This document shows positions 13,417 through 41,603 of a DNA stretch of 64,000 bases, piece after piece. The DNA is from Hyphomicrobiales bacterium (GTDB taxonomy: Bacteria > Pseudomonadota > Alphaproteobacteria > Rhizobiales > Rhizobiaceae). The number at the start of each line of letters is the position of its first letter. The first letter of the stretch is position 1. The notes beneath the pieces are model-generated. The model ran no database searches. It saw only the letters and a list, made by a program, of their open reading frames with translations, and was not told where the DNA came from. The translations under genes were made by a program, and so were the position numbers. The stretch covers positions 1 to 64,000 of the forward strand of contig JAAEOH010000356.1 in the NCBI GenBank assembly GCA_024244645.1, written 5' to 3'.

Positions 13417-13435
13417 GGCTTCCTCCATTTTGTCC

Positions 13436-22422: not shown

Positions 22423-22535
22423 TGCGAATTTCTTTTAGAAATCCCAATTTCGAACGAAACTTGCTAAACCTGCCGCAAAACGTCTAGGTTGGGGAGTGAA
22501 AGCTCAAGCGATTTTTCTTCATTTGAAAGTTACTT

Positions 22536-23583: not shown

Positions 23584-23612
23584 TTGACAAAATAGGTAGT
23601 ATACTACATAAT
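23584..23612 (+). promoter_or_regulatory. Candidate sigma70-type promoter with operator C in the spacer, upstream of dctP
   Basis: TTGACA (23584-23589) N17 CATAAT (23607-23612); perfect 12-bp palindrome GTAGTATACTAC at 23596-23607. Confidence 0.65.
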
Positions 23613-23702: not shown

Positions 23703-24677
23703 ATGAACAAGATTCTTGAGGTATTGGCCGCAGCCACAGTCGGCTTGGCGATTTCGGCAACCGCATCGCTGGCGGCTGACATGAAGATGCTCACCGCATG
23801 GGGACCAAACCACTCCGGTACAGCCAACATGGCCTATGGCTATATCAAGCTGGTCGAGGAAATGACCGGCGGCGACGTATCGATCAAACCGAGCGGGCCG
23901 GAAGTCGTTCCCGGCGGCAAGCAATTGCAGCCGGTTGCAGCGGGTGTCTTTGATCTTATCTACACGCACGGTCTTTATCACACCGGTACAACCGGCATCG
24001 GCGCTGCTATTGATGCGGTGAACGGCGATATCGAAAAACGCCGCACCAGCGGTGTGTGGGACTGGGTTGACAAGCATTACCAGGAAACACAGAACCTGAA
24101 GGTTCTTTCCATTCCGACCGCGACCACCGGTTTCCGGTTTTTCCTGAAAAACGAAATGGATCCAGGCAAAAAACTGGACGGCATGAAAATCCGCGCGCTT
24201 CCGTCCTACAACAAAATCGTCGGCTCGCTTGGTGGAACGGCAGTCGTCATTCCGTTTGGCGAACTCTATTCCGCCGCTGAAAAGGGTGTGATCGACGGGC
24301 TGGTATGGCCGAGTGTCGGTGCTGTCGGCTTCAAATTTCACGAAGTCACGCCATATCTGGCGGAGCCCGCATTCGGTACCGTGTCCTATCTGATCATGAT
24401 GAACCTCGACAAGTGGAACGCACTTGATGCCGATACGCAAAAGGCGATGCTTGAAGCGGGTCACAAACTTGAGCAGGACACGGTCGGTGTCTTCAACCAG
24501 CTGCTTGAAGAAGAAAATGCGATGATGGTGAAGGGCGGCGCAAAGACCACCAGCATCGGGTATTCGCTCGAAGAAGCAAACAAGCTGTTTGCAGACCGTG
24601 CGATGGAGGTTGCGATTGAAAAATCCGGTGCGACCGGAGAAGCCTTCCGCGACTTTGTTGCCTCGCAGGGCATGTAG
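23703..24677 (+). CDS. dctP: TRAP transporter solute-binding protein, DctP family
   Basis: Signal peptide MNKILEVLAAATVGLAISATASLAA; MKIRALPSYNKIVGSLGGTAVVIPFGELYSAAEKGVIDGL. Confidence 0.93.
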   Translation: MNKILEVLAAATVGLAISATASLAADMKMLTAWGPNHSGTANMAYGYIKLVEEMTGGDVSIKPSGPEVVPGGKQLQPVAAGVFDLIYTHGLYHTGTTGIGAAIDAVNGDIEKRRTSGVWDWVDKHYQETQNLKVLSIPTATTGFRFFLKNEMDPGKKLDGMKIRALPSYNKIVGSLGGTAVVIPFGELYSAAEKGVIDGLVWPSVGAVGFKFHEVTPYLAEPAFGTVSYLIMMNLDKWNALDADTQKAMLEAGHKLEQDTVGVFNQLLEEENAMMVKGGAKTTSIGYSLEEANKLFADRAMEVAIEKSGATGEAFRDFVASQGM

Positions 24678-24691
24678 AAAACTCCCAAGCA

Positions 24692-24718
24692 TTTCCGCCG
24701 CGGTCGCCGCGGCGGAAA
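24692..24718. other. Perfect 12-bp stem / 3-nt loop hairpin between dctP and dctQ
   Basis: TTTCCGCCGCGG-TCG-CCGCGGCGGAAA. Confidence 0.8.
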
Positions 24719-24808
24719 CATATGCAGGAATGGACGGACTTGCTTTCAGCTCATACGCTTTGCTGGCGATGAGCGTTTTCAAACCACGCCGACAGGGCAG
24801 CATTCGCC

Positions 24809-25330
24809 ATGACCAATGTTTTTGCCAAGTTCTGTACAATCCACGATCGGCTCACTGAGGTTGCGGCGGTTCTGGGCGCGATCGGGCTCATCGGCATCGT
24901 TGTGTCCTATGTTTACGAAGTGGTGACGCGCTATTTCTTCAACGCCCCGACGGCCTGGGTCAGCGATTTTGTCTCCTATGCACTGTGTGCGTCGGTTTTC
25001 CTGGCGCTGCCGAAGGTCACCAAGGACAAAGGGCACGTCGCGGTGACGATCGTGGTCGATATCGTACCGCAAAAAATTGCAGACACGATGCATACCACCA
25101 TCAATCTGATCGGGTTCATCTGCCTCGGCTTTGCCGCCTATATCAGCCTGCAGGAAAACATTCGGCAATACAGCAAAGGCATCGAGACATTGGCGATTGT
25201 GCCCATTCCCCAATGGTGGGTATCGAGTTTCATAACCTTCGGCCTTGCGCTCAGTTCAATTTACTTCTTGCGTTACGCACCGGCGTCACAGCGGGTCCGC
25301 AGTGACGTTCTCAAAGAGAGGCCCGGCTGA
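24809..25330 (+). CDS. dctQ: TRAP transporter small permease, DctQ family
   Basis: YEVVTRYFFNAPTAWVSDFVSYALCASVFLALPKVTKDKGHVAVTIVVDIVP. Confidence 0.9.
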   Translation: MTNVFAKFCTIHDRLTEVAAVLGAIGLIGIVVSYVYEVVTRYFFNAPTAWVSDFVSYALCASVFLALPKVTKDKGHVAVTIVVDIVPQKIADTMHTTINLIGFICLGFAAYISLQENIRQYSKGIETLAIVPIPQWWVSSFITFGLALSSIYFLRYAPASQRVRSDVLKERPG

Positions 25331-26643
25331 TGGAGTGGTACGTAACCCTGCTTGCTGGTGTAGCAATCCTTTTCGCGCTGTTTTTGTCCGGCGCACCGAT
25401 TTTTCTGGCTTTTCTATTTGCCATATTGACCGGGGTATATTTCATCATCGGACCGGCCGGTTTTCCGATGTTTGCCAACAGCATTCTGGACACCGCATCG
25501 ATTACCTCGCTGGCATCGATTCCATTGTTCATTTTGATGGGCGAATTGTTGTTCAGATCGGGAACAATGGATGTTCTGTTTGATTCCATCGACAAGCTTG
25601 TCGGCCGGGTTCGCGGGCGTCAATACGTGCTGGTCGTGGTTCTATCAGCGGTGTTCGGGGCGTTGTCCGGCGTTGCCATGGCCGTTGCCGCAATGCTCGG
25701 ACGCGCAATCATGCCGGGCATGCAGGCGCGCGGTTATGATCGCGATATCGCTGCGGGGCTGATCGTCAGCGGTGCGAGCCTGGCGCCGATTATTCCGCCC
25801 AGCCTCCTGGCCATCATCGTCGGGTCCATCGCCGATGTATCGATCGCAAAGCTGCTGATCGCCGGCGTCATGCCGGGTTTGCTGCTTGGCGGCATATTTC
25901 TGGTCTATGTGTTCGTGCGCATTGCCATGAACTCGGAACTGGCTCCGGCAAATGTCGGCTCCGAACGCGGCGAGATATCCTTTGGCGAACAGGCGATGGC
26001 GCTGATACGCGTCCTGCCGTTTGCGATCGTGATATTCTCGGTCATGGGCTTCATCATGCTCGGCGTTGCGACGCCGTCGGAATCGGCCGCGACGGGTGTT
26101 CTCGGCGCGCTGATCACCGCTGCCATCTACCGCAATCTCAACATGAAAATGATCTGGGATTCGGTGATGGCGTCGATCACCGTTTCGGCGATGATCCTCG
26201 CCATCATGGTCATGTCGAAAATGTTCACGCAGTTGCTGGCCTTCACCGGCGCGACCAGCGAACTTGTGCAGCTGGTCGCCAATCTCGGTTTCAGCCCGAT
26301 CGTCATGCTGATTATCATGCTTGCCGTGCCGTTCGTGCTTTGCATGTTCATCGACACGATCGCCGTGATCCTTCTGACCATTCCGATCTATCAGCCGGTG
26401 GTGACCAGTCTTGGATTCGATCCGGTGTGGTTCTGGCTTTTGTTCCTGATCAACATCACGCTGGGCGCCATCACGCCGCCCTTCGGCTATACGCTGTTTG
26501 CCTTCAAGGCGGTCGTTCCGGAAATGACCATCAGCGATGTCTACAAGGCAACATGGCCGTTCGTTATTCTGTTTTTGTTTGGGATCGCCGTCATCATCGT
26601 CTTCCCCGGCATTGCTACCTGGCTGCCCAATCTGACTGGATAG
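25330..26643 (+). CDS. dctM: TRAP transporter large permease, DctM family
   Basis: 437-aa multi-TM; GASLAPIIPPSLLAIIVGSIADVSIAKLLIAGVMPGLLLGGIFLVYV; GAITPPFGYTLFAFKAV. Confidence 0.95.
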   Translation: MEWYVTLLAGVAILFALFLSGAPIFLAFLFAILTGVYFIIGPAGFPMFANSILDTASITSLASIPLFILMGELLFRSGTMDVLFDSIDKLVGRVRGRQYVLVVVLSAVFGALSGVAMAVAAMLGRAIMPGMQARGYDRDIAAGLIVSGASLAPIIPPSLLAIIVGSIADVSIAKLLIAGVMPGLLLGGIFLVYVFVRIAMNSELAPANVGSERGEISFGEQAMALIRVLPFAIVIFSVMGFIMLGVATPSESAATGVLGALITAAIYRNLNMKMIWDSVMASITVSAMILAIMVMSKMFTQLLAFTGATSELVQLVANLGFSPIVMLIIMLAVPFVLCMFIDTIAVILLTIPIYQPVVTSLGFDPVWFWLLFLINITLGAITPPFGYTLFAFKAVVPEMTISDVYKATWPFVILFLFGIAVIIVFPGIATWLPNLTG

Positions 26644-26671: not shown

Positions 26672-29035
26672 TCAGACTGTTGCAGCGTCTGTAAATGACG
26701 CGCGGCGACGGTCTACCGATGTATTGCCGTAGAGCGTCGTGCGCTGCCGTGACGGACGGCCGAGATTTTGCAGCAGTGCTTCCATTGCCTCGGGGGTCAT
26801 TTCCTGGCCGTGCTCCGCACCGGCAGAACGGGTAATTGTCTCGTTCATCAGGGTGCCGCCGATATCGTTGACGCCGGCGGAAAGACAGGCCGCGAGGCCT
26901 TCCGGTCCGAGTTTCACCCACGATGCCTGAATATTGGTGATGTGCGGGTGCAATGTCAGACGAGCGACTGCGTGTATCAGCAGCGCTTCGCGCCATGTCG
27001 GACCGCGGCGGCTGGCGCCCTTGAGATAGATCGGTGCTTCCATGTGCACGAAGGGCAGGGGCACAAACTCGCTGAAGCCGCCGGTACGCTGTTGCTGTTC
27101 GCGCAGCCGCAGAAGATGACGCGCCCAGTTCAACGGCCGGTCGATGTGGCCATACATGATCGTCGAGGTTGTCTTGAGCCCCAATCGGTGGGCGGTGTCG
27201 ACGACCTCGAACCATTCATTCGTGTTGATCTTGTCCGGACAGAGCCGAACGCGCACTTCGTCATCGAGAACCTCTGCAGCGGTGCCCGGAAGGCTTCCAA
27301 GACCCGCTTCGATCAGCTGGTCGAGAAAATCGGCAATCGGGATGCCCAGCGTCTGCGCGCCCTGATGGATCTCAAGCGGCGAGAACGCATGGACATGAAT
27401 ATCCGGCACTTCGGATTTGATGGCCTTCAGGATGTCGAGATAAGTCTGGCCGGTGTAGTTCGGATGAATGCCGCCTTGAAGACAGACTTCCACTGCGCCG
27501 CGATCCCACGCCTCCTTTGCGCGCCGGGTTATCTCCTCAAGGCTCAAATCATTGGGCTTGCCGCGCAGATTGTCGCTTGTCTTGCCTTTTGAAAATGCAC
27601 AGAACCGGCACTTGAAATAGCAGATGTTCGTGTAGTTGATGTTGCGTGTGACGACATAGCTGACCGTATCGCCGCAAACTCTGCGGCGCAGGGTGTCGGC
27701 GGCCCGCGCGACCTCCATGACTTCGCCGTTGCGGGCGGCCAGCAGACGTTCGATCTCGGGCAGCCGCAGATCTCCACCATCGACGGCCCTTTCAAGAATG
27801 CGGCCGAGTGCGCGGTCCTTGATAAAGCCGGGCGTGGTCAGGTTCTTCGGCAGCGGTAGGCCGGCGACGCCGGGGAACCAGCCGTCGGTACGTGCCAGGC
27901 CATCGGCGTCGATGGTATCCAGCACCGGTGCGCGCAGCCGGGCATCGAGCCACCGGTCGCCATCATGTGCAAATTGCGGATAAATGCCGAGCCTTTCAAC
28001 CAGGATTTTACCAGAGGATGCGGTGTCGCTCGCCAGGGTCTCCAAATGTGGCCAGGGTGCCTCCGGATTGACGTGGTCGGGGGTCACGGGCGAAACACCG
28101 CCCCAATCGTTGAGGCCGCTGGCGATCAGTTCGCTCGCAGAACCTGCCGACAGGTTGGGCGGTGCCTGGATCGACATGTCAGGTCCGAATATCAAACGGG
28201 CGACGGCAATCGTCCACTGAAGATCGGCCAGATCCGGCTCCGGAGCGCCTTCCATGCGCGTGCCCGGTTTGGCGCGAAAATTCTGAATGATGATTTCCTG
28301 CAGATGACCGTAGCGATCGTGCAACCGGCGCAGAGACAGCAGGCTCTCAATGCGTTCGCGGCGGGTTTCGCCGATGCCGATCAGGATACCGCTGGTGAAC
28401 GGCACCTTCTGCCGGCCGGCCTCCTCAATGGTCGCGAGCCGGACGGCCGGATCCTTGTCGGGCGAGCCATGATGGCAACCGCCGCGTTCCGTCAGGCGCG
28501 GAGACACGTTTTCCAGCATGATGCCCATCGACACGGAGACTTTCCGAAGGGCGGCGATTTCGTCAGCATCCATGACGCCGGGATTCAGATGCGGCAGCAG
28601 ACCGGTTTCGGCAAAGACCAGTTCGGCCATGGCGTGCAGATATTCGATCGTGCTGCCATAACCGTGATCGTCCAGCGCGCGGCGTGCGGCCGCATAGCGC
28701 AATTCGGGCTTGTCGCCGAGCGTAAACAGGGCCTCCTTGCAGCCGGCCGCCTTGCCTTGCCGGGCAATCTCCAGAACCTCCTGCGGGTTGAGATAGGCGG
28801 AGGCGAGCTTTTTGGGGGCCTTGGCAAAGGTGCAATAGTGACAGACATCGCGGCACAGTTGGGTGAGCGGTATGAACACCTTGCGCGAATAGCTGATCAG
28901 CCGGCCGTGGCCGATATCGCGTGTCGCCGCGGCACGGGCAAGCAGGGTGTCCTGCGGCTGATCGAGCAGGGCGTATGCGTCCGCATCGGAAAGGCGCTGC
29001 GCCATTTCGCCGGTGTTGATCATCATGGTGTTCAT
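26672..29035 (-). CDS. fbiC: FO synthase, fused CofG-CofH type
   Basis: Two radical SAM motifs, CRDVCHYC and CYFKCRFC; CofG half then CofH half (INTNEWFEVVDTAHRLGLKTTSTIMYGHID). Confidence 0.95.
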   Translation of the reverse strand: MNTMMINTGEMAQRLSDADAYALLDQPQDTLLARAAATRDIGHGRLISYSRKVFIPLTQLCRDVCHYCTFAKAPKKLASAYLNPQEVLEIARQGKAAGCKEALFTLGDKPELRYAAARRALDDHGYGSTIEYLHAMAELVFAETGLLPHLNPGVMDADEIAALRKVSVSMGIMLENVSPRLTERGGCHHGSPDKDPAVRLATIEEAGRQKVPFTSGILIGIGETRRERIESLLSLRRLHDRYGHLQEIIIQNFRAKPGTRMEGAPEPDLADLQWTIAVARLIFGPDMSIQAPPNLSAGSASELIASGLNDWGGVSPVTPDHVNPEAPWPHLETLASDTASSGKILVERLGIYPQFAHDGDRWLDARLRAPVLDTIDADGLARTDGWFPGVAGLPLPKNLTTPGFIKDRALGRILERAVDGGDLRLPEIERLLAARNGEVMEVARAADTLRRRVCGDTVSYVVTRNINYTNICYFKCRFCAFSKGKTSDNLRGKPNDLSLEEITRRAKEAWDRGAVEVCLQGGIHPNYTGQTYLDILKAIKSEVPDIHVHAFSPLEIHQGAQTLGIPIADFLDQLIEAGLGSLPGTAAEVLDDEVRVRLCPDKINTNEWFEVVDTAHRLGLKTTSTIMYGHIDRPLNWARHLLRLREQQQRTGGFSEFVPLPFVHMEAPIYLKGASRRGPTWREALLIHAVARLTLHPHITNIQASWVKLGPEGLAACLSAGVNDIGGTLMNETITRSAGAEHGQEMTPEAMEALLQNLGRPSRQRTTLYGNTSVDRRRASFTDAATV

Positions 29036-29697
29036 GCTGCTCCCCTGTCGATCAGCTGGCTGGTCACAGAGCCACGCAATTGACCAAGAAATTCATGCGT
29101 TGCGCCACAGGTGGTCTGCATTGCCAGATCGTGAAGATCTGACGATGTGTCGATATCGAGTGCCAGACCCGGGGCCTCGAGTATCTGCGGCCGGAGTCCG
29201 CATGCATGCGACGCGTATTTGTAACCGGAGAAGCTGTCTGGTCCGAAAGCGGGGCGAATAACGTCTCTTTGAGACAGAAACAGTCCGTTGGTGCCTTGCA
29301 GGTCGCGTGCCGCGGCGAGACGGATGTGGCGCTTGTCAGCGGCCGCCGGCGCAGTCAGCGCAGCTATTTCAGGGCCGGTTGCGAGCGGAATGTCGCCGGG
29401 CAACACGGTAACATTGCTGTTGGCGGAAACCTCTGCCAGTCCGAGCATGACCGCTTCATTGTAGCCTTTTGCCTGTTGCTCACAAACCGGTCGCGCGTTG
29501 TATTTGCGGGCGATGTCGAAAACCGTGTCATCGCTCGCAACAACCCAGAGTTTGCCGTGATCGATCCGGACGACGGTGGCCAGAAGATCCTCCAGCATGG
29601 CAAGCACAAGTCCGACCCGCTCGGAAGGGGTAAGGACCGGTGCGAGGCGCTGTTTGGCGAGCGTCAGGCTCTTTATTGGAATTATGATCTCGGTCAT
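29032..29697 (-). CDS. cofC: 2-phospho-L-lactate (or PEP/3PG) guanylyltransferase
   Basis: IIIPIKSLTLAKQRLAPVLTPSER…VLPGDIPLATGPEI; embedded in F420 cluster. Confidence 0.92.
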   Translation of the reverse strand: MTEIIIPIKSLTLAKQRLAPVLTPSERVGLVLAMLEDLLATVVRIDHGKLWVVASDDTVFDIARKYNARPVCEQQAKGYNEAVMLGLAEVSANSNVTVLPGDIPLATGPEIAALTAPAAADKRHIRLAAARDLQGTNGLFLSQRDVIRPAFGPDSFSGYKYASHACGLRPQILEAPGLALDIDTSSDLHDLAMQTTCGATHEFLGQLRGSVTSQLIDRGAA

Positions 29698-30656
29698 CGT
29701 TCAAGTCCCCCACTCAGCCGGGCAGCAAATTCGACGGTCCTGCCAGCCAGTTCGACGCGGTCGTTCAGGTCGTTCATGACGGTTTGAGCGACCTCGACGT
29801 GCATTCCCATATCGGCAATTTCAGGCGCATGGTGCGCGTCCTTTTCATCGATGACCAGCCCGTCGATAAAACCCTGATAGTGACGCGCGATTTCAACGGC
29901 GGAGGCTGGCATGCCAAGTTCAGCCATCATCTTTGCCGCGGGACCCTTGAGCGCTTCACCGCCAACTATCGGCGATACGGCGACAATAGGCGCTTTGCTT
30001 TCGCGCAGCGCGTCACGCATGCCAGGCACCGCTAGGATAGGGGCAACGCTCACAAATGGGTTCGACGGTGCAATGACAATTGCAGCCGGATTGTCGCGGA
30101 GCGCGGATATCAGAGCCGGATTGGGCAGAGCCTTTTCAATGCCGACAAATGCAAATCCCGTGACTTTCGGCGCGCATTGCTCGCGGACAAAATAGTGCTG
30201 AAATGTGAGCCGGCCCTCGGCGGTATCGACCATGGTCGCCACAGATTGATCGCACATCGGCACGATAGGAACCGTGATGCCCAGAACGCCGGAAACGTAA
30301 GCGGTCACTTCACTCGGGCTTGCACCGTTTTTCAAGCGATCCGTTCGATAGACATGAAGGGCAAGATCACGGTCGCCGAGATTGAACCAGTCGGCGCCGC
30401 CGATCTCACGCATGGCTTCCATGAAATTCCAGCTTTCGCCGGCACGGCCCCAGCCGCGCTCCTTATCGGCGAGATTCGACAATGTGTAGATCACCGTATC
30501 AGTGTCTGGGCAGATACGCAGACCGAAATGATCGAAATCGTCGCCGGTATTGGTTACGACCAGCAGCCGTTCCGCAGGCAATGTGTGGGTCAGGCCAAGC
30601 ACCAGTTTTGCGCCGCCGACGCCGCCGGAAAGTGCGATGATGCGGTCGGCGCTCAT
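29694..30656 (-). CDS. cofD: 2-phospho-L-lactate transferase
   Basis: IIALSGGVGGAKLVLGL…VVTNTGDDFDHFGLRICPDTDTVIYTLSNLADKERGWG…WFNLGDRDLALHVYRTDRL. Confidence 0.95.
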   Translation of the reverse strand: MSADRIIALSGGVGGAKLVLGLTHTLPAERLLVVTNTGDDFDHFGLRICPDTDTVIYTLSNLADKERGWGRAGESWNFMEAMREIGGADWFNLGDRDLALHVYRTDRLKNGASPSEVTAYVSGVLGITVPIVPMCDQSVATMVDTAEGRLTFQHYFVREQCAPKVTGFAFVGIEKALPNPALISALRDNPAAIVIAPSNPFVSVAPILAVPGMRDALRESKAPIVAVSPIVGGEALKGPAAKMMAELGMPASAVEIARHYQGFIDGLVIDEKDAHHAPEIADMGMHVEVAQTVMNDLNDRVELAGRTVEFAARLSGGLER

Positions 30657-31432
30657 CGAAACAAATCCTCCGAAATGTCGCGGATCAGGTCCGCAGCGGG
30701 CCGGTTGGGTGCGTTGTCCGCCGCGCTGAAGTCAAGCCCGCGGATCAGCGCCAGAGGCCGTCCCTCTGCTCCCTGACCCTGAACGAGAGAGGCGGCGGCG
30801 GCCAGCTCATCGGCAATGGCCTGCTGGCTGACCTGCAATTCACGTCTGAACATATCCTTTTCGCCGCGCCGGTCCCAGAGGCTCGGCACTCCGGCGGAAC
30901 CAAGCGCCACCCCGGTGGTTCCGAGCCGCCACGGGCGGCCAAAACTGTCATTGATGAGCACGCCCACCTCGGCTCCGGTGCGGGTACAGAGCTGCTCGCG
31001 CAGCGCGTCGCAGGACCGGTCCGGATCGAGGGGCAGGAGCAGCACATTTTCCTCGCCGTCGCTGGAGGCGACGTTGGATGCGTCAATGCCGGCATTGGCC
31101 ATGATCCAGCCGCGATGATGTTCGGTGATCAGAACGCCAGGTACCTGGCGTAAAACAGATTTGCTCTCAGTCAGGATGAGTTCAACCAGCCGTGGGTCCT
31201 TGTCCGTCGCATGGGCAAGATCCACTGCCCGCTTGCCGGGGACGATGGTGTTGAGATCAACCAGACGGCCCTCCGATTTAGAGACGATCTTTTGCGCCAG
31301 AACAACAATGTCGCCGTTTTCAAGCGTCATGCCGTTGGCCTTCAGGGCATCGCCGACAATGGTTGCCAGATCGTCTCCGGGAACGATCATCGGAACCTTG
31401 TCGAGCGCCTCGATGGTCAACGCCTTGGTCAT
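30653..31432 (-). CDS. cofE: Coenzyme F420-0:L-glutamate ligase, stand-alone
   Basis: DDLATIVGDALKANGMTLENGDIVVLAQKIVSKSEGRLVDL…INDSFGRPWRLGTTGVALGSAG; 259 aa, no FbiB-type nitroreductase domain. Confidence 0.95.
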   Translation of the reverse strand: MTKALTIEALDKVPMIVPGDDLATIVGDALKANGMTLENGDIVVLAQKIVSKSEGRLVDLNTIVPGKRAVDLAHATDKDPRLVELILTESKSVLRQVPGVLITEHHRGWIMANAGIDASNVASSDGEENVLLLPLDPDRSCDALREQLCTRTGAEVGVLINDSFGRPWRLGTTGVALGSAGVPSLWDRRGEKDMFRRELQVSQQAIADELAAAASLVQGQGAEGRPLALIRGLDFSAADNAPNRPAADLIRDISEDLFR

Positions 31433-31439
31433 GTTGCTG

Positions 31440-32114
31440 TCAGCCCTCGGCGGGGGCCGGATTGCCGGTGATGCGGATGCCGGCGCCGGGGATCTTGTAG
31501 TGGCCGTTGATGAATATCAGAGCCGATGTCAGCGCTTCGGCGATGGCGGAATTGTCGATCCGTCCGGCGTGCCATGCCTTCATTCCGCCATCGGTCGCCA
31601 GCTTCACGACCGCCTCGCGTGCCGCTGGATCGTTGCCGCAGACCAGCACATCGCAGTCTATAGCGTGATCAAGCTCGGCAAGATGGGCCGCGGCCACATT
31701 CTGAAAGGCAGAAACGACCCGCACTCCTTCACCGAGCGTCTGCTGCACGGCCTTGGCGACCGAGCCGCCCTCGGGAAGCTGCACGGTGCGCACTTTCGGA
31801 GGCATCAGCGGAACCGTGACATCGATCAGGATCTTGCCGTCGAGGTGCGGGCGAATGGTCTCCAGTGTTGCCGCGTGGCTGGCATAGGGCACCGTCATTG
31901 CGACAATGTCGCCCTTAGCTGCCGCCGCAGCGTTTTCAAGGCCTGAAATCTCGGTTCCTGCCCTGGCCGACAGCTCCGTTGCGATTTTATCTGCACGCTC
32001 GCCGTCACGCGATCCTATCGTCACGGTGTGACCGGCCCGGGCCCAGCGTAGCGCCAATCCGGCGCCCAGTGCGCCGGTGCCGCCGATGATTGCAATATTG
32101 GATTTGTCGGTCAC
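31440..32114 (-). CDS. npdG: F420:NADPH oxidoreductase (NpdG/FNO)
   Basis: IAIIGGTGALGAGLALRWARAGHTVTIGSRDGERA…DVLVCGNDPAAREAVVKLA. Confidence 0.92.
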   Translation of the reverse strand: MTDKSNIAIIGGTGALGAGLALRWARAGHTVTIGSRDGERADKIATELSARAGTEISGLENAAAAAKGDIVAMTVPYASHAATLETIRPHLDGKILIDVTVPLMPPKVRTVQLPEGGSVAKAVQQTLGEGVRVVSAFQNVAAAHLAELDHAIDCDVLVCGNDPAAREAVVKLATDGGMKAWHAGRIDNSAIAEALTSALIFINGHYKIPGAGIRITGNPAPAEG

Positions 32115-32143: not shown

Positions 32144-32575
32144 TCAATTGTTCTGTTGTGGCGGCTTGATGGCGTAACAGGCCCGTCCAACGGCTACCAG
32201 TTTTTCGCCGTCGTCGTAAATATCAACATCGACGAAGCCGGCGGTGCGGCCTGACCGACGCACCTTCGCTTTGGCCGTCAGGTCCGTATTTTGAGCCAGC
32301 CGCAAAAAATCGGTGCTGAAATTGAGTGTCAGCATGGGCCCGGCGGCAACTAGCATGAGCGCATAACAGCCGGTGATATCTACGAGCGAAGCAATGACCC
32401 CGCCATGCCACTGATCTGTGTCGGGCTGACGTTCGAATTCAGGGCACCAGCGCACTTTGAGGAGCAGTGTCTGCTGGTCATTGTCGACCTCCAGCACCTG
32501 CGGGCGAAACAGCTGGTGGTAGAGCGACCGGCTGATCTGCTCCTGAATGTCCGAAACCGTGAGATTGTTGCTCAT
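32144..32575 (-). CDS. PaaI-like hotdog-fold thioesterase
   Basis: WHGGVIASLVDITGCYALMLVAAGPMLTLNFSTDFLRLAQNTDLTAKAKVRRSGRTAGFVDVDIYDDGEKLVA. Confidence 0.85.
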   Translation of the reverse strand: MSNNLTVSDIQEQISRSLYHQLFRPQVLEVDNDQQTLLLKVRWCPEFERQPDTDQWHGGVIASLVDITGCYALMLVAAGPMLTLNFSTDFLRLAQNTDLTAKAKVRRSGRTAGFVDVDIYDDGEKLVAVGRACYAIKPPQQNN

Positions 32576-32585
32576 CGTCCAGACC

Positions 32586-33518
32586 TCAGCCTGCAGTCAT
32601 TTTCTGCAGTTGCGGCAGAATTTCGGTGGCACATTTGTTGACATAATCCATGCGTTCTTCCGGCGGCATGACCAGCGCTATGATAATGTGGTTTGCGCCG
32701 GCCTGCACATATTCGCCGAGCTGCTCGACGATCCTGTCAGACGGGCCGTAGGCGCAATATTTGTCGACGATCTTTTCAAACGGCATGTTGAAGCGGAAGC
32801 TCAGCTGCTCGATGGCGCGGTTGCGGGCTTCCTGAACGTCGTCATGCATGCTGACATACATGAAGCTGGTGAAGGCAAAATCGTCGGCCAGTGGACGGTT
32901 GTATTCCTCGGCAAAGCCTTTGATCTTCTCTACTGATTCAGCCAGAAGATCGGGCGTGTACATATAGGGCTGCCAGCCGTCGCCCAGGCGCGCCGCGCGG
33001 CGCATTGCCGGATCGCTCCTGCCGCAGACCCACAAAGGCGGGCCGCCGGGCTGGTGTGGCGGAGGCAGCATGTCGACGTCCTCAAGCTTGAAGATTTCGC
33101 CGTCGTAGCTGAAGCGCTCGCCGCTCCAGTATTTGCGCATGATCTCGATGCCCTCATTGGCGCGTTTGCCGCGTTCCTTCATGGATACGCCACAGGCCTG
33201 GAATTCTCGCGGATAGTCGCCGCCAATCCCGACCGAAGCGACCAGACGGCCCTTTGAGAGGATATCAAGCGACGTCAGTTCTTTCGCCATGATTGTCGGA
33301 TGGCGCAGCGGCAGGATCAGTGTCGAAGGTATCAGCTTGATTTTTGTGGTGACTGCCGCGGCGTGGGCGAGCACCGTGACGACATCCAGTATCGGCCGGA
33401 AGAAAATCATATGTTCGCCAGTGGTCATGAAGTCGTAGCCGGCCTCTTCCACCCCGGTGAGCTGATGTGGCTCCCAGACATCTCCGTCGATGTGAAATCC
33501 GACCTGAACCCTAGCCAT
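32586..33518 (-). CDS. LLM class (luciferase-like) flavin/F420-dependent oxidoreductase
   Basis: DVVTVLAHAAAVTTKIKLIPSTLILPLRHPTIMAKELTSLDILSKGRLVASVGIGGDYPREFQACGV. Confidence 0.9.
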   Translation of the reverse strand: MARVQVGFHIDGDVWEPHQLTGVEEAGYDFMTTGEHMIFFRPILDVVTVLAHAAAVTTKIKLIPSTLILPLRHPTIMAKELTSLDILSKGRLVASVGIGGDYPREFQACGVSMKERGKRANEGIEIMRKYWSGERFSYDGEIFKLEDVDMLPPPHQPGGPPLWVCGRSDPAMRRAARLGDGWQPYMYTPDLLAESVEKIKGFAEEYNRPLADDFAFTSFMYVSMHDDVQEARNRAIEQLSFRFNMPFEKIVDKYCAYGPSDRIVEQLGEYVQAGANHIIIALVMPPEERMDYVNKCATEILPQLQKMTAG

Positions 33519-33547
33519 TTTATTCTCCTGTGTCTTTCGCCCGTTTG

Positions 33548-35050
33548 TCAGGCAGACTTTTGTTGCTCGATTTGTTCCTGGACGAGGATTTCAAGGTCAT
33601 CGCGGCGTACCTTTCCGATGGCCGTCAGCGGGATCGCATCGATCTCGGTTATGAACTCGGGCCATTTAGCCTTGTCCAAGCCGACATCTTCGCAGTGCGC
33701 ACGCAGATCATTCAATGTTACGGGTCCGACTGCCACGACCACCGCTGCGAGCCGCGAACCGAGCCGGTCATCGGGATAACCGACAATCGAGACATCGGTC
33801 ACCGACGGGTGTCCGAGGAGCACGTTTTCGATCTCGAGAGGGGAAATGTTCTCGCCGCCACGCAGGATGATATCGCGGGCCCGGCCGATCATGCGAATAT
33901 AGCCGTCCGGCCGCTGTTCGGCGGCGTCACCGGTGGCGTACCAGCCGTCGGGCTTCAAACGTCCGCCTGGATCACCGCTCCAGTAGCCCTTCATCATCTG
34001 CTCGGGGCTGTGCAGTTCAAGCTCGCCGTCGACGACCCGTGTTGTCGTGCCGGGCAGGGCAATGCCGTCGGTATCCAATCGGTGCTCAAGCGCTGCATCC
34101 AGCGGAACTGCGGTGACAGCGCCTGCCTCCGAAGTGCCGAAATAGGACCAGATCTGGCAATGGGGTAAAGCCTTGAGGCCGCGATTGACCAGGGGTCGCG
34201 GCACCGGCGCGCCGGCGGACGGAAAGAAGCGCAGGGTCTTAATGCGATCGACACCGTTTTCCTCTGCCCAGGTTACCATATCCATGAGAAAGGGGGTCGG
34301 AGCGACCGTGAATGCGCATCCGTACCGTTCGATAAGGTCTACCGCAGTTTCGATGCGCCAGCGTGGAACGAGAACCATGACGGAATTGAGCATCAAGGAC
34401 AGGCGCACGCCGAAGAGCAGCGCGACAGCGTGACCGACCGGCGAGGATACAAGGATCGGGTCATCGGCAGTCAGACCGAAATGCTGTGCGAAGACTTCCG
34501 TCTGCCGTTCCAGCGTCGCGGCCGTGTGCTTGGCGGCTTTTGGTGTGCCGGTTGTGCCTGAGGTGCAGGCCAGCCAGACGATCTCATCCGGCGCGCGGGC
34601 GACGGGCCTGTCAGGACCGATTGGAGCTTCTTCATCGGGGCGGAAACGCCGGTCGCCCAGTTGGTCGAAGAGCGGATTGTCGCCGACAAGGTGCTCCGTC
34701 AGGATGACGCAACTGGCGTCAAGGATTTCGGCTAGCTCGGTGATGCTGGTTCCGGCCGCCCAGGGCAGATTTACCAGGACGGCACCGCACAGGCGGATTG
34801 CCAGATAATCGACCACAAACTCAATGGCGTTGGGCCGCGCGACAATGACCCGGCTGCCGGGTGTGACGCCCTGTGCAATCAACTGTCCGGCACGAGCCCT
34901 CGAGCGGGCGATGAGTTCCCCAACGGAAACCTCCCGGTCGGGTTCTGCTATGGCCAGTGAATCGGGGTCGCGGCTGCAAAGACGTGACCATTCCTCGGCT
35001 ACGTAATCCCGTTCGACGCCAGTATCATCCATGTGTGCGCTTGTGGTCAT
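33548..35050 (-). CDS. Acyl-CoA synthetase (ANL/AMP-dependent ligase superfamily)
   Basis: WLACTSGTTGTPKAAKHT; YWSGDPGGRLKPDGWYATGDAAEQRPDGYIRMIGRARDIILRGGENISPLEIE; AIGKVRRDDL. Confidence 0.93.
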   Translation of the reverse strand: MTTSAHMDDTGVERDYVAEEWSRLCSRDPDSLAIAEPDREVSVGELIARSRARAGQLIAQGVTPGSRVIVARPNAIEFVVDYLAIRLCGAVLVNLPWAAGTSITELAEILDASCVILTEHLVGDNPLFDQLGDRRFRPDEEAPIGPDRPVARAPDEIVWLACTSGTTGTPKAAKHTAATLERQTEVFAQHFGLTADDPILVSSPVGHAVALLFGVRLSLMLNSVMVLVPRWRIETAVDLIERYGCAFTVAPTPFLMDMVTWAEENGVDRIKTLRFFPSAGAPVPRPLVNRGLKALPHCQIWSYFGTSEAGAVTAVPLDAALEHRLDTDGIALPGTTTRVVDGELELHSPEQMMKGYWSGDPGGRLKPDGWYATGDAAEQRPDGYIRMIGRARDIILRGGENISPLEIENVLLGHPSVTDVSIVGYPDDRLGSRLAAVVVAVGPVTLNDLRAHCEDVGLDKAKWPEFITEIDAIPLTAIGKVRRDDLEILVQEQIEQQKSA

Positions 35051-35059
35051 GCCGCCCCA

Positions 35060-36079
35060 CTAGATTTTTTTGATTTCGGCAATCAGCTTGCCGACTTGCT
35101 CGTCGGACAGCCCGTCGAACCAGGTTTCATCGATCTGAATCCGGTCGACTTTTCCGCCGTAGCGCTTCTTCAGCGCACCCGGCAACGCATCCGGCTTGGC
35201 GATCACCGCATAGGCCTCCAGCATCTCGTCGGTTACGAGATTGCCCATCTCCTCCCACTTGTTTTCACGGGTCATGGCCGCGAAATCCTCCTGGCTGACG
35301 GTCCAGCCGTGCATTGACAGCATTTCCTTGTATTCGGGCGTCGAAGCATAGAGCGCCACGCGCTCTTTCAGCCCCTTGACCACCTTGTCGATGCCGGCAT
35401 CCGACGTGGCGCAGCCGATAAAGCCGTAACCGCCGAGGTTGAGGTCTTTCAGCTTCCGGCCCGAGCGCTCCAGGCCGATCTCAAGGTTCGGCAGCATGAC
35501 CTCCTCGTGCCATTTCCAGGTGATCGGATCGCCGGGAAGATGGCCATCGGCAAGCTCGCCACACAGGCGGCACATGTATTTGTTGATCGCGGCCAGATGT
35601 ATCTCGGGGAACCCGGATTCCAGCGGCCCCGGGTTGTAGTAGGGGATCATCAGATTGTGCTTGTAATAGATTCCGTCATAGTCGAGTTTGGTGCCGTTTT
35701 GCCAGCAGTCCCAGATCGCACGCAGCGCGTTAATGTAGTCCTTCATTCGCCTTACGGGTGGCTGAAAATCCATGCCGAAGCGACGGGTCAGATGCGCCTT
35801 GATCTGGGAACCGATACCCAGCTGAAACCGGCCTCCCGACAATTCGTTCAGTGACCAGGCGTCATAGGCGGTGGCCATCGGGCTGCGCGGGAAGGCGACA
35901 AACACGCCCGTCATCATCTTGATCCTTTCGGTCACCATCGCACCGGCGGCAGCCGAAAGCGTCGGGGGAACGGTGAGTTCCAGAAGGGTGGTGCCGTCAT
36001 AGCCGATCCGTTCCGCCCGGGCGATCGCATCGGGTATAGCGGAAAGCTTCTTTGGCCGAACCATGGAATAAACGTGCAT
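35060..36079 (-). CDS. LLM class F420-dependent oxidoreductase, TIGR03617-like
   Basis: MHVYSMVRPKKLSAIPDAIARAERIGYDG…LGIGSQIKAHLTRRFGMDFQPPVRRMKDYINALRAIWDCWQ. Confidence 0.85.
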   Translation of the reverse strand: MHVYSMVRPKKLSAIPDAIARAERIGYDGTTLLELTVPPTLSAAAGAMVTERIKMMTGVFVAFPRSPMATAYDAWSLNELSGGRFQLGIGSQIKAHLTRRFGMDFQPPVRRMKDYINALRAIWDCWQNGTKLDYDGIYYKHNLMIPYYNPGPLESGFPEIHLAAINKYMCRLCGELADGHLPGDPITWKWHEEVMLPNLEIGLERSGRKLKDLNLGGYGFIGCATSDAGIDKVVKGLKERVALYASTPEYKEMLSMHGWTVSQEDFAAMTRENKWEEMGNLVTDEMLEAYAVIAKPDALPGALKKRYGGKVDRIQIDETWFDGLSDEQVGKLIAEIKKI

Positions 36080-36092: not shown

Positions 36093-37775
36093 TCAGTTTG
36101 CTTGTTTGTAATGGCGAGCGACAAACTCGTCAGAGTATTTGCCGCTGTTGAGATCCCGCGCGATTGCTTCGGCATCGCGTTCTGCGGGATTGCCGTAACC
36201 GCCGGCGCCTGGTGTCTCGACCGCAATGTGGGCGCCGAGCTGGACCTCCACCTCGTTTGGCTTGTCGTCCAACCGCCGCTCACCATCCTCGTCGCGGATC
36301 AGGAACCGCCCCGAGGCGCCGGCCTCGCCGCCGAACAACCCCCAGGGCTGATAGCGGAACCGTTCGCCAGCGCCGTTAAACACGCATTCATGGTCCACCG
36401 GGGTCAGAACCCGGCGCAGTCCCATACCGCCCCGGAACTTGCCCGCACCGCCGGAATCCTCGACGAAACTGTATTCTTCGACCCGCAGCGGATATTCCTG
36501 CTCGATCGATTCCACCGGCAGGTTCGACGTGTTGGTGATGCCCACCTGCACCCCGTCCTTGCCGTCCTTTGTCGCCCGTGCGCCCATGCCGCCGCCCAGC
36601 GTTTCAAAATAGAGGTAGGGCCTGCCGGTGCGCGGATCGACGCCGGAAAACACTGCGGTGGTATTGGCCCCATTGGCGGCCGCGATCACCTTGTCGGGCA
36701 GCGCCTTGCTGAGCGCACCGAGCGTGACGTCGATCACCCGCTGGCAGGCATGCGCCCGTGCCGCAACAGGGGCAGGAAATTCACAGCTTAGCAACGACCC
36801 GGGCTCCGCATGGATATCCACTACATCCAGCACCCCCTGGTTGCTGGGCATCTCTGAATCAAGGGCGGCAATCAGTGCATAATTCACGCTGGCCTGCACC
36901 GCGTTCATCGTGGTGTTGATGTTGCCCTTCACCTGCGGGCTGGTGCCCGTGAAATCCAGATGGATGCGGTCGCCGCTCACCGTCAGTTTCAGACAGATCG
37001 GGATGTCGAACGTATCAATGCCGTCGCCGTCCATGAAGTCGCTGAATTCGTAAACCCCATCGGGGATTTCGGCGATGATCGCCCGCATCCTCGTCGCCGT
37101 GCGCGAGATGATCTCGTCGAAGGCGGTCAGGACGTTTCCAAGCCCGTGGACTCCGACAACTTCCAGGAACCGGCGCTGGCCTAACCGGCACGAGGCAATC
37201 TGCGCATTGTGGTCGCCGCGCCGTTCCTCGGGCACGCGGACGTTCAACAGCATGATGTCCATGATGTCCTGTTGCAGTTCGCCTCTGCGAAACAGCTTGA
37301 CCACCGGAAGGCGCAGGCCCTCCTGATAAATCTCGGACATGCCGCCGGCCATCGAGCCGGGAACCATGCCGCCGATATCGGCGTGGTGGGCGATGTTGCA
37401 GACAAAGGCGACCAACTCGCCCTCGATGAAAATCGGCATCGCATAGTTGATGTCCGGCAGGTGCGTGCCCCCGGCGGTGTGAGGGTCGTTGGCGACGAAG
37501 ATATCGCCTTCATGGATATCATCGCCGAACTTTTCCAGCACGCATTTCATCAGGCCGCCCATGGACGCGATATGGATCGGCAGGGTCAGCGCGGCCTGCA
37601 CCACAAGCCGGCCTTCGCGGTCGACGATCGCAATCGAGTGGTCCTTGCGTTCCTTGATGTTGGTCGAATAGGACGACCGCATCAGCGCCACAAAGCATTC
37701 ATCGGCGATCGAGCGCAGCCCGTTGGCAATGATCTCCAGCCGAATCGGGTCGAGTTCATGGGCGTCGATGCTCAT
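36093..37775 (-). CDS. hyuB: Hydantoinase B/oxoprolinase family protein
   Basis: RLEIIANGLRSIADECFVALMRSSYSTNIKERKDHSIAI…VANDPHTAGGTHLPDI…GMGLRRVLTP. Confidence 0.95.
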   Translation of the reverse strand: MSIDAHELDPIRLEIIANGLRSIADECFVALMRSSYSTNIKERKDHSIAIVDREGRLVVQAALTLPIHIASMGGLMKCVLEKFGDDIHEGDIFVANDPHTAGGTHLPDINYAMPIFIEGELVAFVCNIAHHADIGGMVPGSMAGGMSEIYQEGLRLPVVKLFRRGELQQDIMDIMLLNVRVPEERRGDHNAQIASCRLGQRRFLEVVGVHGLGNVLTAFDEIISRTATRMRAIIAEIPDGVYEFSDFMDGDGIDTFDIPICLKLTVSGDRIHLDFTGTSPQVKGNINTTMNAVQASVNYALIAALDSEMPSNQGVLDVVDIHAEPGSLLSCEFPAPVAARAHACQRVIDVTLGALSKALPDKVIAAANGANTTAVFSGVDPRTGRPYLYFETLGGGMGARATKDGKDGVQVGITNTSNLPVESIEQEYPLRVEEYSFVEDSGGAGKFRGGMGLRRVLTPVDHECVFNGAGERFRYQPWGLFGGEAGASGRFLIRDEDGERRLDDKPNEVEVQLGAHIAVETPGAGGYGNPAERDAEAIARDLNSGKYSDEFVARHYKQAN

Positions 37776-39844
37776 GCTGTGCCCTCCATATGAATTTTGA
37801 TGATCAAATGTCCGTCGGGTGTCATTTCCGCGACATCGCCGGGATAGACCGGCGTTGTCGTGTCCATCTGCTCGATGACCGCCGGGCCGGTGATGCTTTG
37901 GCCGGGCCGCATTTCCGCGCGGTCGTAGATCCGGGCCTCGACCGGCTCATGAGCCTCGAAATACACTGGGCGCCGGTCGCGCGGGGACGGAGTGCCGGGA
38001 TCACCGGTCACTTCCGGTTTGTCAGGGAAATCATGCAGCTTGGCGCTGGCCGAAAGCCGCACGTTGACGATTTCAATCGGATCGGTGTCGCTCGAATAAC
38101 CGTAGGCCACGTCATGCGCCTGGCAGAAGGCCGCATGCAGGTTCGCCGCGTTGGGCACATCGGTCCCGCTGAGCGTCGAACCGCCGGCAACCGGGACGGC
38201 CAGTTCGAAATTCTGGCCGACATAGCGGGCATCGACCACCAGTTGTACATGCCGCCCGCTTTGCGGGGCGTCCTCTCCATCGAACCACTCGACGGCCCGG
38301 TCGTGCAGTTCCTCCAGCGTCAGTGCCAAAACCTTGACGCCATCCTCATCGATGGCAAAACGCCGGCTCGACACGAAATCTTCCTTTAGATCAGACACCA
38401 GCAGCCCTTGCGCGCAGACGATCCCAGGCGCCGCCGGTACGACCATTTCGTGAATCCCCAGGCTCACTGCCACGTCGCGGGCGTGCAGCGGGCCGGCGCC
38501 GCCAAAAGGCATCAGGACGAAGTCACGCGGGTCATGGCCGCGTTCCACCGAAATCGTGCGGATCGTGCGAACCATGTTGGCAACCACAATGCCGAGAACG
38601 CCGTGGGCCGTGCGTTCCACAGAAAATCCCAGGCGGTCGGCAATCGGCTGGTAGACCTTGCGCGACAGTCCGGGATCGAGCCCCATATCGCCGTCCAGAA
38701 GGCCTCGGGACGACAGGCGTCCCAGCAGAAGATTGGCGTCTGTCGTGGTCGGCTGGTCACCGCCGTTTCCATAACAGGCCGGGCCGGGATAGGCGCCGGC
38801 GCTGATCGGACCGGCCTTCAGCAGACCGTCGCGGTCGAACCAGGCAACAGAGCCACCACCCGCGCCGACTGTTTCCACATCGACGCAGGGCATCCGGATC
38901 GGGAAACCGGCGACATCGCGATCGAATGCAAGATCGACCTTGTAGTTGCGGATCAGTGCCACGTCGGCGCTGGTGCCACCCATGTCCAGGGTGATGATGT
39001 TCCGGCGATCGGTCTGGCGGGCGACATGGGCCGCGCCCACGGCCCCCGCGGCCGGACCGGAAAGCGCTGTGCGGACCGGAAACTCCCGCGACCTTTTCAC
39101 CGACATCAGGCCGCCACTCGACTGGTTGATGCCGAGGGTCGCATTCGGAGCGCTTTCGGCAACGCCGTTTTCGAGGGTCTGCAAATATTCCCACATCACC
39201 GGCTGCAGATAGGCGTTCAGAACCGTCGTCGACAGGCGCTCATATTCGCGAAATTCGGGTTGCACCTCCGACGACAGCGATACCGCGATTTCCGGTGCGC
39301 GCATGCGAAGGGCGGCGGCGAATTTTTCTTCATGTTCCGAATTACGGAAGGCGAACAGGAAGCCGATGGCGCAGGCTCCACATCCGCTGGCGATCACCGC
39401 ATCGATGGCTGCATCAATATCGGCATCGGTCGGGCTGCGGACGACCTCGCCCTGCGCGCCAATGCGTTCGTCCAGCTCGATGCGATGCTCACGGTCGGCC
39501 AGCGGAGCGGGGTGATCATTTTGCAGGTCATACATATGCGGCCGTGTCTGACGCCCGATCTCCAGCAGATCCCGAAAACCCTTGGTCGTGACCAATGCGA
39601 CACCGCTGCCGGTCCGCTGGATCAGCGCGTTGGTGCCCACCGTTGTTCCATGGGAGAGGCGTCCTATTGCATCGAGTGGAATCTCATACCGTTCGCAAAG
39701 GGCTGAGAGCCCCGACAGGATCGCCTGCGCCGGGTTCGCCGGCGTTGAGGGTGTCTTTCCGACATGAAAGATGCCCGCCTCGTCATTGGCTGCGTAAAAG
39801 TCGGTGAAAGTTCCGCCGACGTCTACACCTATTGTCCAGCCCAT
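37772..39844 (-). CDS. hyuA: Hydantoinase A/oxoprolinase family protein
   Basis: IGVDVGGTFTDFYAAN…RLSHGTTVGTNALIQR…LDMGGTSADVALI…FGGAGPLHA. Confidence 0.95.
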   Translation of the reverse strand: MGWTIGVDVGGTFTDFYAANDEAGIFHVGKTPSTPANPAQAILSGLSALCERYEIPLDAIGRLSHGTTVGTNALIQRTGSGVALVTTKGFRDLLEIGRQTRPHMYDLQNDHPAPLADREHRIELDERIGAQGEVVRSPTDADIDAAIDAVIASGCGACAIGFLFAFRNSEHEEKFAAALRMRAPEIAVSLSSEVQPEFREYERLSTTVLNAYLQPVMWEYLQTLENGVAESAPNATLGINQSSGGLMSVKRSREFPVRTALSGPAAGAVGAAHVARQTDRRNIITLDMGGTSADVALIRNYKVDLAFDRDVAGFPIRMPCVDVETVGAGGGSVAWFDRDGLLKAGPISAGAYPGPACYGNGGDQPTTTDANLLLGRLSSRGLLDGDMGLDPGLSRKVYQPIADRLGFSVERTAHGVLGIVVANMVRTIRTISVERGHDPRDFVLMPFGGAGPLHARDVAVSLGIHEMVVPAAPGIVCAQGLLVSDLKEDFVSSRRFAIDEDGVKVLALTLEELHDRAVEWFDGEDAPQSGRHVQLVVDARYVGQNFELAVPVAGGSTLSGTDVPNAANLHAAFCQAHDVAYGYSSDTDPIEIVNVRLSASAKLHDFPDKPEVTGDPGTPSPRDRRPVYFEAHEPVEARIYDRAEMRPGQSITGPAVIEQMDTTTPVYPGDVAEMTPDGHLIIKIHMEGTA

Positions 39845-39905: not shown

Positions 39906-39940
39906 AATAGGGAGTATACTACGTAATTTAAGGGAGTCAA
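39906..39940 (-). promoter_or_regulatory. Candidate hyuA promoter overlapping operator D
   Basis: Minus strand TTGACT (39935-39940) N16 TATACT (39913-39918); 39906-39927 matches operator C region 23591-23612 at 20 of 22 positions. Confidence 0.65.
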
Positions 39941-40139: not shown

Positions 40140-40640
40140 ATGAACGAGACGACACCGAAACGACGTGATTTTACAAGCTTGTGGGATCGGCCGGGCTTTC
40201 TCATCAGGCGGCTGCACCAGATACATGTCGCATTGTTCCTGGAAGAATGCAGCGAATTCAATATCACACCGTTGCAGTTTGCCGTTCTGACCGTGCTTTA
40301 TGACCGCGAGACCCTCGATCAGGTAACCATCGCAAACCAGATCGGCGCCGACCGCAACACGGTCGCGGATGTCATCCGACGGCTGGAGCGGCGCGGTCTC
40401 CTGGAGCGCCCGGTCAGCGTGGCCGACAAGCGCGCCAAACTTGCGCATATTACCGATGAGGGCCATGCGTTCGTCGAGGCCGTGCAACCCAAGATGATCG
40501 AGGCGCAGCGGCGTTTGACACAGCCGCTCGAGCGGGAAGAATACGACGTGCTGATGAAACTGATGCGCAACTTGATGCAGGAAAACAACGAAGCCAGCCG
40601 CGCGCCCATGCGGCCGGGCGTGTTGCAGCCCGATGGCTGA
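40140..40640 (+). CDS. MarR family transcriptional regulator
   Basis: NITPLQFAVLTVLYDRETLDQVTIANQIGADRNTVADVIRRLERRGLLERPVSVADKRAKLAHITDEG. Confidence 0.93.
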   Translation: MNETTPKRRDFTSLWDRPGFLIRRLHQIHVALFLEECSEFNITPLQFAVLTVLYDRETLDQVTIANQIGADRNTVADVIRRLERRGLLERPVSVADKRAKLAHITDEGHAFVEAVQPKMIEAQRRLTQPLEREEYDVLMKLMRNLMQENNEASRAPMRPGVLQPDG

Positions 40641-40689: not shown

Positions 40690-41603
40690 ATGACACACGC
40701 TTACAAAGGCATCTGGCCGGTGGCGCCGACGCCGTTTCACGATGACGGTTCGCTGGATCTGGATGGCATGAAGCGGGTGCTCGACTGCATCATCGACCAG
40801 CAGGCGGACGGGATCTGCATCCTGGCGAATTTTTCCGAACAGTTCCTCCTTTCCGACGCAGAGCGTGGCGTTCTTGCACGGCTCTGCCTCGAGCATGTTG
40901 CCGGCCGCGTGCCTGTGATTGTCACAATCAGTCATTTTGCCACGCAGATCGCCCTGGAACGGGCGCAGCGGGCCAAGGAACTCGGCGCGGATATCGTGAT
41001 GATGATGCCGCCCTATCACGGGGCGCTCTTGAAGGGCAACGCAGGCCAGACGTTCTAACAGGTGCGGCCGTCGGCGCCGTCGGCATTCCCATCATGATCC
41101 AGGACGCGCCGTTGTCCGGTGTCGATCTGCCGGTGCCGCTGCTGGTGAAGATGGCCCGCGAGATCGAAATGGTGAAGCTTTTCAAGATCGAGTGCCCGCA
41201 AGCCGCCAACAAGCTGCGGGCGCTGATCGCCGAGGGGGACGATGCCATCGAAGGACCGTTCGACGGCGAGGAAGCGATCACGCTGCTCGCCGATCTCGAT
41301 GCCGGCGCGACTGGTTCGATGACGTCGGGCATGATCGTCGACCGGATCAAGCCGGTGATCGATCACTATCTTGCCGGCGATACGGATGCGGCAACAGACG
41401 CCTATGCGCGGGTCCTGCCGGTGATCAACCACGAGAACCGCCAATGCGGCTGGCGCGCCTGCAAGGCGGCGATGAAAGAGGGCGGCGTGATCGCCTCGGA
41501 TACCTGCCGCCACCCGATCGAACCGCTGCATCCGGAGACCCGGACGCGGCTGATCAGCCTGCTACAGGCGATTGATCCGCTGGTGTTGCGGTGGGGGCGG
41601 TGA
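40690..41603 (+). pseudogene. Dihydrodipicolinate synthase (DapA) family protein disrupted by a -1 frameshift
   Basis: N-half 40690-41058 (KGIWPVAPTPFHDDGSLD…VMMMPPYHG) and C-half 41094-41603 (MIQDAPLSGVDLPVPLLVKM…) in different frames; the correct frame resumes as TGAAVGAVGIPIMIQDAP just after the stop. Confidence 0.85.

What the first reader, a model, noticed from the sequence alone, without database searches (positions are those of the whole stretch)
39906..39927. Near-identical 22-bp palindrome-containing site in the hyuA-F420 promoter and the DctPQM promoter
AATAGGGAGTATACTACGTAAT (39906-39927) and AATAGGTAGTATACTACATAAT (23591-23612) match at 20/22 positions although about 16 kb apart in front of unrelated genes. 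The core (A)GTATACT(AC) is palindromic. In both cases it overlaps promoter elements: the spacer of TTGACA-N17-CATAAT for dctP, and the -10 of TTGACT-N16-TATACT for hyuA. This ties the TRAP transporter to the F420/hydantoinase pathway as one regulon.
Basis: partly seen in the sequence, partly recalled or inferred. Interest (0 to 1): 0.82.

Follow-up and report, generated by a model that had tools for sequence, protein, structure and literature searches.

The report
Shared MarR operator controlling F420-dependent catabolism
Two nearly identical 22-base DNA sites probably switch a nutrient importer and a catabolic operon together, and because that operon carries the bacterium's only detected genes for the rare cofactor F420, the cofactor may be made only when a particular food molecule is present.

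Summary
AATAGGTAGTATACTACATAAT (23591-23612, dctP promoter) and AATAGGGAGTATACTACGTAAT (39906-39927, hyuA promoter) match at 20/22 and are the only such sites in the 6.3-Mb genome. The locus is conserved in related genomes: dctPQM convergent with an 11-gene run (hyuA-hyuB-LLM-CoA ligase-LLM-thioesterase-npdG-cofE-cofD-cofC-cofGH), with marR divergent from hyuA. All eight genomes whose sequence covers both promoters have both sites, inside flanks diverged to near-random identity. A matrix trained only on dctP sites finds every hyuA site, and vice versa; 37 other F420 loci (0.64 Mb) lack the motif. The palindrome lies 6 bp further from the -35 box, and inverted, in hyuA compared with dctP, so it behaves as an operator rather than a promoter element. 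The divergent MarR protein (related to PcaV, BpsR, HosA, CouR) is the only regulator I found with every complete cluster; the LysR gene beside dctP is not conserved. I conclude that this is a MarR repressor regulon of known type. Its unusual content is all detected F420 biosynthesis genes of the genome plus a TRAP importer. Binding, sign of regulation, ligand and substrate are untested.

The parts
23591..23612 (+). Operator 1: AATAGGTAGTATACTACATAAT, in the dctP promoter
23584..23612 (+). dctP promoter: -35 TTGACA 23584-23589, N17, -10 CATAAT 23607-23612; operator 1 fills the spacer and the -10
   Evidence: box positions conserved in ten genomes
39906..39927 (-). Operator 2: AATAGGGAGTATACTACGTAAT on the + strand, in the hyuA promoter
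39913..39940 (-). hyuA promoter: -35 TTGACT 39940-39935, N16, -10 TATACT 39918-39913, the -10 lying inside the palindrome
40140..40640 (+). marR, proposed repressor, divergent from hyuA
   Evidence: NCBIfam MarR-type models (Saro_0803 1.9e-19, HpaR 2.6e-14; below their cut-offs); PcaV 4.6e-19; orthologues with every complete cluster
23703..24677 (+). dctP, TRAP solute-binding protein
   Evidence: NCBIfam TRAP_S1 above cut-off; 87-94% identical in relatives
24809..26643 (+). dctQ (24809-25330) and dctM (25330-26643), TRAP permease subunits
   Evidence: dctM above cut-off; dctQ weak; synteny
36093..39844 (-). hyuA (37772-39844) and hyuB (36093-37775), ATP-dependent hydantoinase/caprolactamase-like subunits
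   Evidence: nearest solved structure N-methylhydantoinase 7hk5, 5.7e-148
32144..36079 (-). LLM oxidoreductase 2 (35060 to about 36079), acyl-CoA ligase (33548-35050), LLM oxidoreductase 1 (32586-33518), hotdog thioesterase (32144-32575)
   Evidence: TIGR03617, TIGR03619 and TIGR00369 above cut-off
31440..32114 (-). npdG, NADPH-dependent F420 reductase
   Evidence: TIGR01915 above cut-off
26672..31432 (-). F420 biosynthesis: cofE (30653-31432), cofD (29694-30656), cofC (29032-29697), cofGH (26672-29035)
   Evidence: TIGR01916, TIGR01819, TIGR03552, PRK09234 above cut-off; cofGH, cofD and cofE single in the genome

Best explanation
The two 22-bp sites are operators of the MarR-family repressor encoded divergently from hyuA (40140-40640). 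Without inducer a MarR dimer sits on AATAGGTAGTATACTACCTATT-like DNA and blocks RNA polymerase at both promoters: at dctP it covers the spacer and -10, at hyuA the -10. When the imported substrate or an early intermediate (probably an organic acid or its CoA thioester) binds MarR, both promoters open, and the cell makes the TRAP importer together with the operon that degrades the substrate and also makes and reduces the F420 that its two LLM oxidoreductases would use. Shown: sequences, uniqueness, promoter overlap, conservation, tight gene spacing, single-copy F420 genes, co-occurrence with MarR. Inferred: MarR binding, repression rather than activation, ligand class, one transcript from hyuA to cofGH.
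For: Only two sites in 6.3 Mb, both in promoters of this locus. Both sites present in all eight genomes that cover both promoters, with flank identity of 15-40% outside the nearest relatives against 73-91% in the site. Matrices trained on one promoter set recover the other (25.6-35.3 bits and 24.4-33.8 bits; next best 14.5 or less), while 37 other F420 loci reach at most 9.2 bits. Of eight family genomes (398 searched) with a hit within one mismatch of AATAGGTAGTRTACTAC, six carry the MarR-F420 cluster. marR is next to hyuA in all complete clusters, and its recognition-helix segment is nearly invariant. In G065 a third site lies at the dctP-like position before an OpuAC-type importer in the same locus. 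In G175 a similar palindrome lies just upstream of a different MarR gene. Palindromes inside promoters and a divergent regulator gene are typical of MarR repressors (PMC5487221).
Against: No binding or expression data. The hyuA site is about 210 bp from the marR start codon and no second site was seen near marR, so autoregulation, common in the family, is not evident. More distant MarR homologues showed no such palindrome in the stretches examined. Co-occurrence with marR may partly reflect inheritance of the whole locus as a block.
Confidence: 0.82

Rival explanations
1. The sites are a shared operator, but of another regulator: the GcvA-type LysR protein at 22536-23450 beside dctP, or an unlinked regulator; the divergent MarR controls something else.
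For: A LysR gene lies directly upstream of dctP in the window and in G281 and G302. An unlinked regulator cannot be excluded by sequence.
Against: The LysR gene was not found in the sequence covered upstream of dctP in G065, G394, G299, G300 and G301, which keep both sites. MarR is the only regulator seen with all complete clusters.
Confidence: 0.12
2. The shared sequence is a promoter element (for example for an alternative sigma factor) and not an operator.
For: It overlaps the -10 or the spacer of both promoters.
Against: Both promoters have ordinary -35/-10 boxes. The palindrome centre is after base 18 counted from the -35 start in dctP and after base 24 in hyuA, and the AATAGG half points the other way. 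The motif is absent from all other promoters of the genome.
Confidence: 0.04
3. Chance similarity, or a dispersed repeat or mobile-element end.
For: A 22-bp similarity alone would be modest evidence.
Against: Zero expected by shuffling; conserved at the same two places in diverged genomes with unrelated flanks; no extended similarity around the two copies.
Confidence: 0.01

Closest known systems
CouR regulon of Rhodococcus jostii RHA1 (MarR family; PMC4737184)
   Same: A MarR repressor with one inverted repeat recurring in several promoters of one catabolic locus, overlapping promoter boxes; the pathway has a CoA ligase step and the regulator is a sequence relative.
   Different: CouR's box cATTGA--TCAATg overlaps -35 boxes and one copy sits between divergent couN and couR; here the repeat is AATAGGTAGTA-type, overlaps spacer or -10, and the regulon holds F420 biosynthesis and a TRAP importer.
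PcaV of Streptomyces coelicolor (MarR family; PDB 4fht, 4g9y)
   Same: Closest solved relative of the window's MarR (4.6e-19); represses a catabolic operon and is released by an aromatic acid (PMC5487221).
   Different: Protocatechuate pathway, no F420 genes; operator not compared because the paper is not held.
BpsR/NicR-like (6pcp, 6pco), HosA (8aga) and HpaR MarR proteins
   Same: Sequence relatives of the window's MarR.
   Different: Other gene contexts. That HosA's operator also has a GTATAC core is recalled from memory and was not checked here.
npd picrate-degradation genes of Rhodococcus with the IclR-type repressor NpdR (from memory)
   Same: F420-dependent hydride transfer and an NpdG-type F420 reductase placed in a regulated catabolic cluster.
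   Different: Different regulator family, actinobacterial; I recall no F420 biosynthesis genes in that regulon. No held paper was found to check this.

Membership tests
MarR-family transcriptional regulator (protein 40140-40640) | Sequence similarity to winged-helix MarR proteins | tested here: met
   PcaV 4.6e-19 and over 60 MarR-type chains; NCBIfam MarR-type models with significant E-values though below equivalog cut-offs
MarR-family catabolic repressor regulon | Palindromic operator overlapping the promoter of the controlled genes | tested here: met
MarR-family catabolic repressor regulon | Regulator gene next to, often divergent from, the controlled operon, and retained with the site in relatives | tested here: met
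   G066 and G150 not informative because of contig ends
MarR-family catabolic repressor regulon | Operator at the regulator's own promoter (autoregulation, frequent but not universal) | tested here: inconclusive
   Only one site in the hyuA-marR interval, about 210 bp from the marR start; the marR promoter is unknown
MarR-family catabolic repressor regulon | Ligand-relieved DNA binding and repression | not testable with these tools
   needs EMSA, footprinting and expression assays
Regulon of the GcvA-type LysR protein 22536-23450 | Regulator gene retained where the sites are retained | tested here: not met
   Not found near dctP in G065, G394, G299, G300, G301
Promoter element of an alternative sigma factor | Fixed distance and orientation relative to the start site | tested here: not met
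   6-bp shift and inverted orientation between dctP and hyuA

The most novel reading that the evidence does not exclude
In these Rhizobiaceae F420 is an on-demand cofactor: its biosynthesis (cofGH, cofC, cofD, cofE) and its NADPH reductase are the distal genes of one MarR-repressed catabolic operon and are expressed only when a TRAP-imported substrate is present. In one relative (G065) the regulon also takes in a betaine-type ABC importer followed by molybdenum hydroxylase genes, hinting at a zwitterionic or N-heterocyclic substrate.
Probability: 0.55. Interest if true: 0.68.

Novelty: new member of a known kind. Interest (0 to 1): 0.55.

Why it matters
[quoted passage not shown] Here the only detected F420 biosynthesis genes of a genome lie behind one predicted repressor site that is shared with a specific importer. 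That offers a concrete reason why F420 could be scarce in uninduced cultures, and a direct route to its role: delete marR or find the inducer, then measure F420 and look for the substrate.

Tried and rejected
Chance or repeat origin: rejected. Promoter-element reading: rejected by different spacing and orientation. LysR at 22536 as the regulator: disfavoured by conservation. Strict co-variation of the two sites within each genome: G394 has GTAGTGTACTAC at both, but G299, G300 and G301 differ between sites, so it is not claimed. Literature searches for F420 with MarR, hydantoinase or TRAP, for the palindrome with MarR, and for homarine catabolism gave no report of this system; absence from an open-access library proves little. 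The substrate stays unassigned: the nearest solved TRAP binding proteins are remote; homarine or another N-methyl heterocycle was considered but is only a guess. More distant MarR homologues gave no matching palindrome in the stretches examined, some of which were read in the wrong orientation. G150 has the dctP site but its contig ends inside dctP, so the missing marR and cof genes there mean nothing. dctP orthologues were not found in 386 other genomes of the class.

Full report
Observation. Shuffled windows give no match even with three mismatches. The window lies in a 6.3-Mb genome of 436 contigs (G000). In that genome the 12-bp core GTAGTATACTAC with one mismatch allowed occurs only at these two places, and the 22-bp degenerate pattern with three mismatches allowed also only there, with no match for the reversed control.

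Anatomy. dctPQM (23703-26643, +) faces an 11-gene run on the minus strand: hyuA, hyuB, an F420-dependent-type LLM oxidoreductase, an acyl-CoA ligase, a second LLM oxidoreductase, a hotdog thioesterase, npdG, cofE, cofD, cofC and cofGH. Gaps between these genes run from -4 to 29 bp (the LLM2 start is uncertain by a few codons), so one transcript is likely but not shown. cofGH, cofD and cofE have no second copy in the genome. marR (40140-40640, +) is divergent from hyuA. The two best promoter-like matches in the 16.75-kb region are exactly those of dctP (11/12) and hyuA (10/12). Operator 1 fills the spacer and -10 of the dctP promoter; operator 2 covers the -10 of the hyuA promoter.

Comparative evidence. 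MarR orthologues of 61-91% identity occur in further genomes of the family, among them Hoeflea poritis, all beside the same gene order where the contig allows it. Eight genomes (G000, G281, G302, G065, G394, G299, G300, G301) cover both promoters and all eight have both sites; G066 and G150 cover only the dctP promoter and have that site. Aligned promoters show conservation concentrated in the operator and the promoter boxes: outside the three nearest genomes flank identity to the window is 15-40%, site identity 73-91%. A weight matrix made only from dctP sites recovers every hyuA site (25.6-35.3 bits; next best 14.5 or less), and a matrix made only from hyuA sites recovers every dctP site (24.4-33.8 bits; next best 10.2 or less). 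Thirty-seven F420 loci from other genomes of the family and class, 642 kb without a match to this MarR, reach at most 9.2 bits.

A further test. Among 398 genomes of the family, eight have a hit within one mismatch of AATAGGTAGTRTACTAC; six of these carry the MarR-F420 cluster. The other two are G242 and G175. In G175 the palindrome lies directly upstream of a different MarR gene beside an efflux-type operon, which fits the palindrome being MarR-type DNA. In G065 a third site lies at the dctP-like position (TCGACA-N17-CATACT) in front of an OpuAC-type ABC importer, followed by molybdenum hydroxylase genes and then marR.

Which regulator. The GcvA-type LysR gene beside dctP is conserved in G281 and G302 and was not found in the sequence covered near dctP in five genomes that keep both sites. 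The MarR gene is present in every cluster that reaches hyuA, and its recognition-helix segment is almost invariant. Its closest solved relatives are PcaV, BpsR/NicR-like proteins, HosA and CouR. PcaV answers to protocatechuate and CouR to p-coumaroyl-CoA (PMC5487221, PMC4737184), so an organic acid or its CoA thioester is the likely ligand class; this is inference.

Operator versus promoter element. Counted from the first base of the -35, the palindrome centre follows base 18 in dctP and base 24 in hyuA, and the AATAGG half points the other way (from the sequences). A sigma-factor element would keep distance and orientation; a near-symmetric dimer site need not.

Mechanism. The best reading is repression by steric block at both promoters, relieved by the substrate or an early intermediate. 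This would couple import, catabolism and cofactor supply. Binding, the sign of regulation, the ligand and the substrate are inferred. HyuA resembles N-methylhydantoinase and caprolactamase, so an ATP-dependent ring opening of a lactam or hydantoin-like compound, combined with F420-dependent reduction, is plausible, but no substrate can be named.

Novelty. As regulation this is a new member of a known kind: a small MarR regulon with a recurring inverted repeat, as in the CouR regulon (PMC4737184). What appears unreported is that the regulon holds all detected F420 biosynthesis genes of the genome. The searches of the held literature found no such case, and the 2021 review calls the role of F420 in the alphaproteobacteria examined minor or niche-specific and says experimental work is needed (PMC8498797).

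Noticed in passing
window 40690-41603: A DapA/dihydrodipicolinate-synthase-like gene just downstream of marR is split between two reading frames (122 aa and 169 aa ORFs): a frameshifted pseudogene or a sequencing error.
   Followed up: partly
window 19263-23450: A glutamate-1-semialdehyde-aminomutase-like class III transaminase, a KamA-type radical SAM aminomutase-like protein and a GcvA-type LysR regulator lie upstream of dctP. All three are conserved in G281, and the LysR and KamA genes in G302; a related set with a CoA transferase-like pair lies upstream of dctP in G150. This looks like a beta-amino-acid pathway that may share the TRAP substrate.
   Followed up: partly
L068 1187-1208 (G065 contig C84): Third copy of the operator, ATTAAGTAGTATACTTCATACT, in front of an OpuAC-type glycine-betaine-like ABC importer, followed by FAD, 2Fe-2S and molybdopterin subunits of a molybdenum hydroxylase, then marR.
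   Followed up: yes
window 384-3769: Molybdenum-hydroxylase-like FAD and MoCo subunits at the left end of the window; only 25-31% identical to the G065 enzyme next to marR and without the operator.
   Followed up: partly
window 9944-15067: A fused TRAP permease with a TAXI-like binding protein and a sulfatase-like gene, judged from the translations only.
   Followed up: no
L147 about 6280-6300 (G175 contig C45): A similar palindrome (TTAGTAGTATACTACTTATT) lies directly upstream of an unrelated MarR gene (25% identical) beside an EmrAB-like efflux operon, suggesting that this palindrome class recurs among MarR proteins.
   Followed up: partly
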